The notes under the pieces were generated by a model. The model was given only the letters and a program-made list of their open reading frames with translations, was not told the DNA's origin and ran no database searches. A stretch of 47,320 nucleotides of DNA from a virus, in the IMG/VR virus record IMGVR_UViG_3300037140_000063, positions 1 through 47,320 of that record, one strand, 5' to 3'. This document shows, one piece after another, positions 30,720-33,881 of this stretch (position 1 is the stretch's first letter; every line of letters starts with the position of its first letter). The translations under genes were made by a program, and so were the position numbers.

Positions 30720-30732
30720 CTATTTTAATTCC

Positions 30733-30778
30733 ACATTTTACAAGAGTGTAAACGGGTATTTTACATTTTACAAGAGTC
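30733..30778 (-). promoter_or_regulatory. TGTAAA/TTTACA box cluster upstream of the terminase genes
   Basis: On the plus strand: TTTACA at 30737, TGTAAA at 30747, TTTACA at 30760 and TTTACA at 30767. The first two form an inverted repeat with a four-base spacer, and a 15-base direct repeat ACATTTTACAAGAGT occurs twice. On the coding strand TTTACA-17-ATTAAA could be a promoter ending just before the ATG. Likely late-gene promoter/operator. Confidence 0.5.
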
Positions 30779-30860: not shown

Positions 30861-31346
30861 GGCCAAGGTCCGGTCTCCTTACGGGCAAGGCTTGGTCGTG
30901 GGGATTGGCAGTCGGTAGTTGGACCTCTCGGTCGCAATGCGAGTGGCCAATCCCCATCTCCCCACGCGATGGATGAGCACACCGCGGCGGGCGTCGGCAA
31001 ATTTCCTATGGCTCATCTCATCAATCACCTAGCTGCTTGCGGCATTGGCCGCTTGTGGTTTCCGGGGGACTGGCAAGCATCGGCTGGACCTTTCGGTCAC
31101 GCTGCAATTGGCCAATCCCCCGAACTTTGAAGACGATGGTGCGGCACTCGGCATGCGACCAATTACTGGCAACTACTCAATGGCCGCATCATCGCCTAAC
31201 TTTGGGGAAGGCACACATATTCTAGCGCTCTCACGCATTCTTATTATGGCCTTCCCCTCCGGGCATCACCGGAAACTGTAAGACGATGGATGGGCAAAGT
31301 GGAAATGGCCGTCACTAGCACGCGCCATATGGCCACATCCATCGTC
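30861..31346 (-). repeat. Array A: GNRA-capped hairpin repeats before the terminase genes
   Basis: Six units of 54-65 bases in one orientation: 30900-30955, 30968-31022, 31064-31121, 31135-31193, 31204-31257, 31282-31346; a degenerate seventh at 30861-30897. Each has an outer stem of 8-11 bp (for example GGGGATTGGC/GGCCAATCCCC, GGGGAAGGC/GCCTTCCCC, GACGATGGATG/CATCCATCGTC) and, in most units, an inner short hairpin whose minus-strand loop is GAGA, GAAA, GTAA or GTGA. Outer stems differ completely between units but keep pairing. Units come in pairs joined by a linker resembling CGGAACTGTAAGACGATGG. No convincing protein is encoded here. Confidence 0.75.
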
Positions 31347-31357
31347 TATCTCTCGCA

Positions 31358-32422
31358 TCACGCGGCGTCCCTCATCTCGCGTGCTGCCAAATCCTTGTTC
31401 CACTCGCGCCACAGGTCTGACACGACGGCCTTGACCATCACCCTGAGCGCGTCGCCACGGGAATGGCCCTTGCTCCAATCTGGATGCGTGACGGCTGTGT
31501 GTTCGCGCCGCCGCACGTAGACCTCGCCATATGGGCCGATCGGCTTGCCGAACGTCGTCTCGGACTTGGCCGCGCTTTCCATCTGTAGGTTTCCGAGCGG
31601 CACTTCGATGCAGGCGTAAATTTCGGCTCGACGTTTCGGGTTGTATCTGGCGCCAACCCATTCGTCCGCGCTCAGTCCGCCCTTCGCCCGCCATTGGGAG
31701 AATGCCTTCCCCTGATATGGGGCGAGACCAAGCCGGCTCCATAGCTTCTCGTCCTTCGGGTATTTTGACAGGTCGCCAGCCTCGCCGATCAGCACGGCAA
31801 ACGCCTTGTCTCCAAATCCCCTGATGCCTTTGACGAATGAATAGGCTGGTAGCAGACGCGCCAGCCGTTCCATTTCCGACTCGATCTCATCGCGCCTCGC
31901 TTGGATTGGCTCAAGTGAAAGGCGGATAGCTTCGATCTCCGCATCCACAGCTTTGAGAATGTCCACGTCCGCCTCGGCTTGAGGCTTACCCGAAAACGCC
32001 TTGCCTATGATCGTGCGCGCCCGAGCCTCGACCTTTTCCTGTGCCGCCTCGTCGTCATGAGCGGGAATTCCTATCATACGCTTAACGAGGCCGGCGGCAC
32101 GATTGGTCGATGACACGACAATCTTGATGCAGAACTTTCGGCGGACTTGCAGCTCTTGCAAGGCGACGACGACGGTAGGGATTTGAGGGCCGCCGTCACT
32201 TGCGCGTTGGCCAAGTTCGGCAGCTGGCGAATGGACGGCGGCGCTCTTTCCCTTGCGGGATTTATTGGAGGGGGCGTCTTTTGCGCGGCCATTTTCGGCA
32301 AAAGGGCGACGGCCCCCTCCTTCCGGTCTCCCGGAATCTGAATTGATGCCTTCATATTCGGCTATTACCTCGTCATTGTCGAGATAGTCCGCGACATTGA
32401 AAGGCGCAAATTTCGTTTTCAT
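31358..32422 (-). CDS. HigA-like N-terminus fused to IS110/Tnp_20-like DNA-binding tail
   Basis: A 354-residue frame. Residues 1-23 (MKTKFAPFNVADYLDNDEVI start) match the first helix of HigA-type addiction-module antitoxins. Residues about 35-78 are translated from two hairpin repeats (array B). Residues about 88-345 match a family with a C-terminal IS110-like Transposase_20 domain: RRKFCIKIVVSSTNRAAGLVKRMIG, a coiled coil, LLPAYSFVKGIRGFGDKAFAVLIGEAGDLSKYP, LWSRLGLAPYQGKAF and IGPYGEVYVRRREHTAVTHP. The HhH-like GIRGFG segment suggests DNA binding. The catalytic DEDD half of IS110 is absent, so transposition is unlikely. It is coupled to the upstream ORF by ATGA. Confidence 0.75.
   Translation of the reverse strand: MKTKFAPFNVADYLDNDEVIAEYEGINSDSGRPEGGGRRPFAENGRAKDAPSNKSRKGKSAAVHSPAAELGQRASDGGPQIPTVVVALQELQVRRKFCIKIVVSSTNRAAGLVKRMIGIPAHDDEAAQEKVEARARTIIGKAFSGKPQAEADVDILKAVDAEIEAIRLSLEPIQARRDEIESEMERLARLLPAYSFVKGIRGFGDKAFAVLIGEAGDLSKYPKDEKLWSRLGLAPYQGKAFSQWRAKGGLSADEWVGARYNPKRRAEIYACIEVPLGNLQMESAAKSETTFGKPIGPYGEVYVRRREHTAVTHPDWSKGHSRGDALRVMVKAVVSDLWREWNKDLAAREMRDAA
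32189..32320 (-). repeat. Array B: two GNRA-type hairpin repeats inside an ORF
   Basis: Unit 32189-32242 has a perfect 9-bp outer stem GCCGCCGTC/GACGGCGGC. Unit 32267-32320 has GGAGGGGGC/GCCCCCTCC plus GTC/GAC with one bulge. Both are 54 bases, as are two units of arrays A and C. Between them is a small hairpin TCCC-GCAA-GGGA on the minus strand, and after the second unit a hairpin TTCCGG-GAGA-CCGGAA (32321-32336); both loops are GNRA. The insert is read in frame as residues about 35-78 of the host ORF. Confidence 0.75.
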
Positions 32423-33252
32423 GGCGTCACCTCGCTACCCGCATCAACCATCTCCGCTGCCTTCTGTAACATGCGTTGCATCGTCTCGATGTTCACGATG
32501 TCACGGATACGGGCGTTCTGATCGCAGGGCTGGCCATGGTCACGAACCAATCGCAGCAATGCGGCCTCCTTTGTATTGGTCGCGATGAACCGATCGATCT
32601 GCGAGAATCGGAGATCACCGAGCGGCGTCCCGTCGCGTAGCAACTGCGTGTCGAAAATGCTCGGCATTGCGTCGCGGACAACCGAGAGTTCGGCTAATCC
32701 GCGCTTTGGGGCTCCGGGGGAGGGCACAGCGATAATGGCCCTTTCAGGCAAGCGGGCATGGGCCACCCCGGAACTGGAAGACGACGGGCGGGCATTGGGG
32801 AAGCGGCCATCACTGGCACCACTAGACTGGCCCACCACGCCGTCTGTTTTCGGGGAAGGCATTAGCGTTCTGGCGCTTTCGCGCAAACAGCTACTGGCCT
32901 TCCCCTCCCGTTCGCCACGGGAATTAGCGAAGGGGGCAAGCGCGTGCTGGCCATCTCTGGCACCGTGCCGCTGGCCCCCTCCATCCGCTTTCGCGGAATC
33001 CTTCAACGCATCTCCACGCATGTCACGCGCGACGCGCTCTAGGTAATTGATTGCATCGATTTCCAGATGCTTGGGCGAGATCAGCTTCGCCATGATGCCG
33101 CCCGCATCCTTGACCTCTTCCATGAACGGGTCAAGCGCCACGCGCGGGGCAAGAAGGGATTTCCGCAGCAGATCGACAGCAATCCGATTCAGCAGCGCGG
33201 CATCGGTATCAACGCCCGCTTTCGCGAGCTGTTCAGCCATTAGCGTTTTCAT
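32419..33252 (-). CDS. Hypothetical protein interrupted in frame by hairpin repeats
   Basis: A 277-residue frame starting at the ATG at 33252, which overlaps the upstream stop (ATGA). Residues 1-85 (MKTLMAEQLAKAGVDTDAAL start, then RVALDPFMEEVKDAGGIMAKLISPKHLEIDAINYLERVARDM) and 182-277 (AELSVVRDAMPSIFDTQLLRDGTPLGDLRFSQIDRFIATNTKEAALLRLVRDHG) look like a normal folded phage protein. Residues about 86-180 are low-complexity Gly/Ser/Arg/Pro, translated from four hairpin repeats (array C). No known family is recognised; the position in the replication/regulation operon suggests a DNA-metabolism or regulatory role. The insert probably forms a disordered loop. Confidence 0.7.
   Translation of the reverse strand: MKTLMAEQLAKAGVDTDAALLNRIAVDLLRKSLLAPRVALDPFMEEVKDAGGIMAKLISPKHLEIDAINYLERVARDMRGDALKDSAKADGGGQRHGARDGQHALAPFANSRGEREGKASSCLRESARTLMPSPKTDGVVGQSSGASDGRFPNARPSSSSSGVAHARLPERAIIAVPSPGAPKRGLAELSVVRDAMPSIFDTQLLRDGTPLGDLRFSQIDRFIATNTKEAALLRLVRDHGQPCDQNARIRDIVNIETMQRMLQKAAEMVDAGSEVTP
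32713..32996 (-). repeat. Array C: four GNRA-type hairpin repeats inside an ORF
   Basis: Units 32713-32772, 32780-32844, 32852-32905 and 32931-32980, same orientation as arrays A and B. Unit three shares the outer stem GGGGAAGGC/GCCTTCCCC and the 54-base length with the fifth unit of array A, and the inner stem is GCGC-GAAA-GCGC. Unit four has inner GCCA-GAGA-TGGC, unit two GCCA-GTGA-TGGC. A closing hairpin CCGC-GAAA-GCGG lies at 32985-32996. Translated in frame as residues about 86-180. Confidence 0.75.
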
Positions 33253-33881
33253 TGCGGTTCTCCATGAAGGTCCCAATATTCGGCCAGATCCTCCAGCCCT
33301 TTACGAAACAGACGAACGGCTCTCGCCGATCCGCCCTTGCTGCGATACCAACCCGCTCCAGCGCGAGGCTCTTGGGCGAGTTTCGCAGCGACTTGGGGGA
33401 ATGGTAGCCTGTCGCCCAGAACACACGACAAAATGCACTCCGGTATCGGACCAATCGCCTTTCTCGCATCAGCCCGCAGATGCACCGTCGCCTCGGCGGC
33501 ATCCATCCTCGCGGCCATGGCCTGTTCATTAGAGCCGCCACCATTCGATGGCTCCATGGAACATCCACCGCTTGTCGCGCCGCGTGATCGCTCAATGATG
33601 CGCTGGTAAATCGTGCCCGCCCGATATGCCGCTGGTGATAGCCGCCCATAGCTGTGCTCGCGCTCCAACGCGTCGGTATTGCGGTTGATCGCCACGCGCT
33701 GACGGCGTTTGCCGACCTGGCCTTTGACATTTTCCAACGCCTGATTTGGATCGATCTCATGTCCGCGAATGATCTGGATTTTCCCGCCGGCGCGCTTGCC
33801 CTCATGCGGAACGTCGATCCTCGCAACGTCGGCGGTCTCCGGCGAGTAGCGGCTGATTTTGCGATAGTCGGCGGCCATCAT
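33249..33881 (-). CDS. DUF6456-like regulatory protein
   Basis: A 210-residue protein. Residues about 65-110 (RNTDALEREHSYGRLSPAAYRAGTIYQRIIERSRG) and 125-205 (DAAEATVHLRADARKAIGPIPECILSCVLGDRLPFPQVAAKLAQ...SARAVRLFRKGLEDLAEYWDL) follow the DUF6456 pattern of alphaproteobacterial regulators and phage proteins (L..L...G.L....YRAG..YR..YE.A...; ..L......VL..VC.EG.....VA..LG.....A...LR.ALD.LA..YG). The second half ends in an HTH-like region. Probable DNA-binding regulator. Coupled by ATGA to the next gene. Confidence 0.7.
   Translation of the reverse strand: MMAADYRKISRYSPETADVARIDVPHEGKRAGGKIQIIRGHEIDPNQALENVKGQVGKRRQRVAINRNTDALEREHSYGRLSPAAYRAGTIYQRIIERSRGATSGGCSMEPSNGGGSNEQAMAARMDAAEATVHLRADARKAIGPIPECILSCVLGDRLPFPQVAAKLAQEPRAGAGWYRSKGGSARAVRLFRKGLEDLAEYWDLHGEPQ

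What the first reader, a model, noticed from the sequence alone, without database searches (positions are those of the whole stretch)
30861..33000. Family of about twelve GNRA-capped hairpin repeats in three clusters
Arrays A (30861-31346), B (32189-32320) and C (32713-32996) share a unit of 50-65 bases: an outer stem of roughly 7-11 bp, a conserved GGCCA...TGCC frame, and in most units an inner 4-bp hairpin that on the minus strand closes with GAGA, GAAA, GTAA or GTGA (for example GCCA-GAGA-TGGC, GACC-GAAA-GGTC, GCGC-GAAA-GCGC). Outer stems are unrelated in sequence between units yet complementary within each unit, which is covariation and argues for selection on structure. All units point the same way as phage transcription, come in pairs with a recurring linker, and small extra GNRA hairpins sit between pairs. 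I know of no described family with this layout. It could be a structured RNA, a processing or packaging signal, or a mobile palindromic element.
Basis: partly seen in the sequence, partly recalled or inferred. Interest (0 to 1): 0.9.

Follow-up and report, generated by a model that had tools for sequence, protein, structure and literature searches.

The report
Phage RNA-guide array with TasA protein
The hairpin repeats are an array of about twelve small guide RNAs of the recently described TIGR-Tas kind, sitting around and partly inside the phage genes for the guide-binding protein and its neighbour, so the repeats are real but of a known kind, with an unusual placement inside genes.

Summary
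On the minus strand of 30899-32986 there are 12 hairpin units in three clusters (4+2+6); the same grammar finds 10 here against 0.1 in shuffled sequence. The claim of "no described family" is wrong. Each unit reads: variable outer stem - CCA - 9 nt - TG - inner hairpin (GNRA loop in 8 of 12) - CCA - 9 nt - TG - stem. That is the stem-loop type of TIGR guide-RNA array (Faure et al. 2025, PMC12045711). The ORF at 31358-32422 is its nuclease-less TasA protein: NCBIfam TIGR_Tas E 9e-18, and the only significant solved-structure profile match is TasR, 9MTY. Six related Rhizobium phage/prophage loci carry the same kind of array beside tasA. Between units that share a stem, across loci, stems are about 90% identical and the 9-nt spacers 27%, near chance, as expected of guides. 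The unusual part is placement: two of three clusters lie in frame inside coding sequence (tasA and a conserved upstream partner gene), and in-gene units recur in most relatives. No DNA targets were found. Processing, target binding and any autoregulation are inferred. Verdict: new variant of a known kind, moderate interest.

The parts
32927..32986 (-). unit C1: spacers GCGGCACGG / GCACGCGCT, GAGA loop; inside partner gene
32852..32905 (-). unit C2: spacers GTAGCTGTT / GAACGCTAA, GAAA loop; inside partner gene
32780..32844 (-). unit C3: spacers GTCTAGTGG / CTTCCCCAA, GTGA loop; inside partner gene
32713..32773 (-). unit C4: spacers ATGCCCGCT / TTATCGCTG, GAAA loop; inside partner gene; weakest fold (z -1.6)
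32267..32320 (-). unit B1: spacers TCGCCCTTT / CGCAAAAGA; inside tasA ORF
32187..32244 (-). unit B2: spacers TTCGCCAGC / ACGCGCAAG; inside tasA ORF
31281..31347 (-). unit A1: spacers TATGGCGCG / TTTCCACTT, GTGA loop
31204..31257 (-). unit A2: spacers TAATAAGAA / GAATATGTG, GAGA loop
31132..31196 (-). unit A3: spacers TTGAGTAGT / CATGCCGAG, 5-nt loop
31064..31121 (-). unit A4: spacers ATTGCAGCG / GCCGATGCT, GAAA loop
30968..31022 (-). unit A5: spacers TAGGAAATT / GCCGCGGTG, shortened 6-nt loop repeat
30899..30956 (-). unit A6: spacers CTCGCATTG / ACTACCGAC, GAGA loop
30861..30898 (-). decayed or partial thirteenth unit (CCAAG...CTTGG), boxes not intact
   Evidence: read from sequence
31358..32422 (-). 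tasA: nuclease-less Nop-domain (TIGR-associated) protein, 354 aa; ATG overlaps the stop of the partner gene
32419..33252 (-). partner gene (ATG at 33252 likely; the listed ORF starts at 33276), interrupted in frame by cluster C; homologue upstream of tasA in L055
32984..32997 (-). small linker hairpin TCCGC-GAAA-GCGGA before unit C1
32321..32336 (-). small linker hairpin TTCCGG-GAGA-CCGGAA before unit B1
32249..32260 (-). small linker hairpin TCCC-GCAA-GGGA between B1 and B2

Best explanation
A phage-borne TIGR-Tas system of the stem-loop type. The phage transcribes partner gene, tasA and the downstream cluster from the minus strand. Each hairpin is one guide RNA (tigRNA): the outer stem replaces the edge repeat, and CCA (box C) and TG (box D) flank two 9-nt spacers separated by a GNRA-capped loop repeat. 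TasA (a Nop-domain protein without nuclease) binds the released hairpins as a dimer, and the two spacers pair with opposite strands of an 18-20 bp DNA site (target = spacer A + reverse complement of spacer B). Without a nuclease, the likely outcome is RNA-guided DNA binding and bending that blocks transcription or replication of competing elements, or tunes host or phage genes. Shown here: the grammar, strand, pairing, hypervariable spacers and TasA homology. Inferred: transcription, processing, DNA binding, outcome.
For: Grammar matches the published stem-loop arrays point by point. It is enriched about 100-fold over shuffles and confined to this locus. TasA: NCBIfam TIGR_Tas_endo E 9e-18 (65 bits) against IS110 38.8 bits; profile with orthologues against PDB has TasR 9MTY as the only significant match, E 1.1e-5; an orthologue's AlphaFold model (pLDDT 73) has TasH-tigRNA 9W03 as the only match below 1e-3, followed by IS110 structures. 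Six distinct Rhizobium phage/prophage loci carry the same unit grammar on the tasA strand. Pairs of units with the same stem in different loci (85 non-independent pairs): stem identity 0.90, spacer identity 0.27. The window's own same-stem pairs behave alike (stem 0.93-1.0, spacer 0.17-0.39).
Against: No target found: none with at most 2 mismatches in the right geometry in the window, and one 2-mismatch hit in seven related sequences. In 299 Rhizobiaceae genomes 6 exact 18-mers (about 2.7 expected, my estimate) against 3 for the wrong-orientation control. No match in the phage collection (sensitivity for 18-mers not calibrated there). P0001 is below the curated NCBIfam cut-off (65 of 100 bits). 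Its own AlphaFold model is poor (pLDDT 50) and gave no match. No transcription data. Box identity is partly built into the search grammar.
Confidence: 0.92

Rival explanations
1. An IS110-family transposon with a bridge RNA: the protein is a recombinase and the hairpins are donor/target loops.
For: The protein has the IS110-type C-terminal domain (Transposase_20, E 0.0014; NCBIfam IS110 E 6e-10); a bridge-RNA loop has the same two-guide layout.
Against: No DEDD catalytic domain found in the N-terminal part; TIGR_Tas scores higher than IS110; 12 separate units rather than one two-loop RNA per element; relatives keep the same arrangement of units around tasA.
Confidence: 0.03
2. Mobile palindromic elements (like Rickettsia palindromic elements) that insert in frame into genes, without guide function.
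For: Units sit in frame inside two ORFs here, and inside tasA in relatives; RHph_X2_25 tasA has 41 extra codons made of units.
Against: Confined to the tasA neighbourhood; always on the tasA strand; stems conserved while 9-nt interiors are replaced, the reverse of what a mobile palindrome predicts.
Confidence: 0.03
3. Packaging, replication or processing signals near the terminase genes.
For: Cluster A abuts the small terminase gene.
Against: RHph_X2_25 carries its array next to a repressor and other early-type genes, not terminase; spacers hypervariable; no fixed sequence element.
Confidence: 0.01

Closest known systems
TIGR-TasA stem-loop array of the Peromyscus leucopus gut contig (Faure et al. 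2025, PMC12045711, Fig. 7)
   Same: Nuclease-less TasA; about a dozen (13 there, 12 here) stem-loop units in three sub-arrays; variable palindromic outer stems; [quoted passage not shown]
   Different: Here the loop repeat is mostly a 4-bp GNRA-capped hairpin, two sub-arrays lie in frame inside ORFs, and a conserved partner gene precedes tasA. The text read there describes arrays as lying upstream, downstream or between genes; supplements were not readable here.
[quoted passage not shown] esperanzae and Metarhizobium album (found here)
   Same: Same unit grammar, 9-nt spacers, same strand as tasA, units inside the 5' part of tasA in most.
   Different: Box D is CG rather than TG; loop repeat is a bare 4-nt loop; TasA only about 27% identical over the matched part.
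IS110 bridge RNA (IS621, ISCro4)
   Same: Nop-type RNA-binding domain; split guide in an internal loop.
   Different: No DEDD recombinase domain here; arrays of single-loop units.

Membership tests
TIGR-Tas, stem-loop branch | Nop-domain Tas protein encoded with the array | tested here: met
   NCBIfam TIGR_Tas E 9e-18, above IS110 but below the curated cut-off of 100 bits; PDB profile match to TasR 9MTY E 1.1e-5; orthologue model matches TasH 9W03.
TIGR-Tas, stem-loop branch | Two 8-12 nt variable spacers per unit | tested here: met
   9 + 9 nt in 12 of 12 units, allowing a few box variants; spacer identity near chance.
TIGR-Tas, stem-loop branch | Box C (CCA) and box D (UG) flanking the spacers, C pairing with G | tested here: met
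   CCA in 10/12 first and 7/12 second boxes, near variants elsewhere; TG in 11/12 of each D box.
TIGR-Tas, stem-loop branch | Variable but palindromic outer stems instead of edge repeats | tested here: met
   76/84 pairs formed, 54.5 +/- 2.9 after shuffling.
TIGR-Tas, stem-loop branch | Array expressed and processed to Tas-bound units | not testable with these tools
   No RNA data.
TIGR-Tas, stem-loop branch | Spacer pair matches a DNA target on opposite strands | tested here: inconclusive
   No target above chance.
TasR or TasH | N-terminal RuvC or HNH nuclease | tested here: not met
   No nuclease domain in Pfam scans of P0001; hence TasA.
IS110 transposase | DEDD catalytic domain plus a two-loop bridge RNA | tested here: not met
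   Only the coiled-coil and C-terminal domain match; 12 one-loop units.
CRISPR array | Near-identical direct repeats | tested here: not met
   Short diverse stems, no long identical repeat.
Any Rfam 15 family | Covariance-model match | tested here: not met
   No match in the region even at E <= 1.

The most novel reading that the evidence does not exclude
The guide units inside tasA and the partner gene serve twice: they are translated as flexible linkers and are cut out as guides, so each guide made destroys a tasA or partner message and TasA, by binding units in its own message, limits its own synthesis. Units also act as cassettes whose stems stay fixed while both spacers are replaced, an unknown way of renewing guides.
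Probability: 0.35. Interest if true: 0.75.

Novelty: new variant of a known kind. Interest (0 to 1): 0.58.

Why it matters
The origin of TIGR spacers, their natural targets and the role of nuclease-less TasA are stated open questions (PMC12045711). The Rhizobium relatives found here include an isolated phage of a culturable Sinorhizobium and prophages of named strains, a set in which guides, processing and targets can be tested in native hosts. The comparison shows wholesale spacer replacement within conserved stems, and guide units placed inside genes, which constrains models of array growth and regulation.

Tried and rejected
Targets: type II geometry (A + rc B, gap 0-2) against the window and seven phage sequences: nothing above controls. 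70 concatenated targets against 299 Rhizobiaceae genomes, after a positive control showed that exact 18-mers are found: B1 matched at T-rich terminator-like sites (after groEL in two genomes, and at an unrelated site in a third), L035_3956 at one orthologous gene start in two genomes; the total is near expectation and the wrong-orientation control gave 3: treated as chance. Viral-contig scans for A3, A4, A6: A4 gave 36 hits, but most come from one phage clade with the same gene, so one chance event multiplied by sampling. P0001 alone and the A6 profile found no relatives in viral contigs; a draw of 385 genomes from the class gave only the R. esperanzae prophage. Fold of P0001 itself: poor and uninformative. 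The Wolbachia WO hit reads as an ordinary IS110-type transposase (judged from its sequence, not tested). A homology between the window partner gene and the small gene upstream of tasA in the Rhizobium phages was suspected and not shown.

Full report
What is there. The minus strand of 30899-32986 carries twelve hairpin units in clusters C (4), B (2) and A (6), in transcription order. Written out, they share one grammar: outer stem ending in a C-G pair, CCA, 9 nt, TG, a loop repeat of usually 10 nt that folds as a small hairpin, CCA, 9 nt, TG, closing stem. The first C of the CCA pairs with the G of the TG at the base of the outer stem. Eight of the twelve loop repeats have a GNRA tetraloop. The grammar finds 10 units in the region and none elsewhere on the minus strand; shuffles average 0.1. 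Outer and inner stems pair far more often than when partners are shuffled between units, and units fold better than shuffled sequence, unit C4 least. No Rfam family matches.

The protein. The ORF at 31358-32422 is called transposase by PHROGs and matches the IS110 C-terminal domain weakly. NCBIfam's TIGR_Tas model scores it at 65 bits, E 9e-18, above the IS110 model at 38.8 bits, though below the curated cut-off of 100. A profile of it and five orthologues matches one solved structure significantly, 9MTY, which is the TasR structure of the TIGR-Tas paper. An orthologue's predicted structure matches TasH-tigRNA 9W03 best. No nuclease domain was found, so it is a TasA.

Known kind. Faure et al. 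[quoted passage not shown] their example has a TasA and 13 units in three sub-arrays. In the TasR structure box C is CCA and box D is UG, with Watson-Crick pairing between them. The window matches each point.

Relatives. Rhizobium phage RHph_X2_25 encodes a TasA homologue (27% identity over 207 residues, E 2e-15). Around it lie units with CCA / 9 / CG / 4 nt / CCN / 9 / CG. Viral and genome collections gave further loci: L005/L029/L031 (R. esperanzae prophage), L006/L032, L033, L034, L007/L030/L035 (Metarhizobium album) and the fragment L008, with 58 units in all. Across loci, units with the same stem have stems about 90% identical and spacers 27% identical, near the chance level (the 85 pairs are not independent, and box identity is partly imposed by the search). 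Only one 9-mer recurs among 140 spacers. This is how guides behave. The phrog_4285 protein of Arthrobacter phage Talia1610 also has several stem-loops with cores of 31-34 nt on its own strand just upstream; their boxes were not worked out.

Closest to the window is L055 (genome G456, same order as R. esperanzae): its TasA is 36% identical. Upstream lies a homologue of the window's partner gene (34% over 123 residues, E 1e-18), and the tasA start overlaps the partner stop in both. Its units also have GNRA-type loops (CC-GCAA-GG) and lie inside the partner gene and the start of tasA.

Units inside genes. In the window, cluster C (278 nt) has no stop in the partner frame but 1 and 5 in the other frames. 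Cluster B has none in the tasA frame. Non-coding cluster A has 9, 3 and 7. In the Rhizobium set, five of six full loci have one to three units inside the tasA ORF; RHph_X2_25 has 41 extra codons there relative to its orthologues. Whether this is regulation, or simply room in a disordered N-terminus, is not settled.

Mechanism. By analogy with TasR, a TasA dimer holds one unit and the spacers pair with opposite strands of a bent 18-20 bp site. The geometry used here, A + rc(B), follows from the reported 8-nt 3' overhangs (my derivation). Without a nuclease, blocking transcription or replication of another element, or regulation, is most likely; this is inference.

Targets. None was found above chance (see Tried and rejected). 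The host of the window phage is unknown, and the set of phages sharing its host may simply not be sampled.

Conclusion. A real, well-formed TIGR-TasA stem-loop system: a known kind, with a GNRA-capped loop repeat, a conserved partner gene and in-frame placement of units in genes as variant features.

Noticed in passing
window 32419-33252 (-) and L055 8620-9384 (-): Conserved partner gene directly upstream of tasA, no Pfam, PHROG or NCBIfam assignment; its C-terminal half is conserved and its middle holds guide units. A different small gene stands upstream of tasA in the Rhizobium phages; homology to it was not shown.
   Followed up: partly
window 31358-32422 (-), residues 1-25: The N-terminus of TasA resembles the start of HigA-type addiction-module antidotes (PF21716, E 0.006), as if an antitoxin start had been fused to it.
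   Followed up: no
window 32984-32997, 32321-32336, 32249-32260 (-): Small GNRA hairpins in the linkers between or before units; possibly processing sites or folding insulators.
   Followed up: partly
window 30728-30777: Two copies of a 20-nt AT-rich direct repeat (ACATTTTACAAGAGT core) between cluster A and the small terminase gene.
   Followed up: no
L003 (Arthrobacter phage Talia1610) 2173-2814 and 2839-3522: Strong phrog_4285 member (E 3e-70) preceded on its own strand by several stem-loops with 31-34-nt cores (for example 2509-2567, 2661-2715, 2763-2814): probably another stem-loop TIGR array, in an actinobacterial phage.
   Followed up: partly
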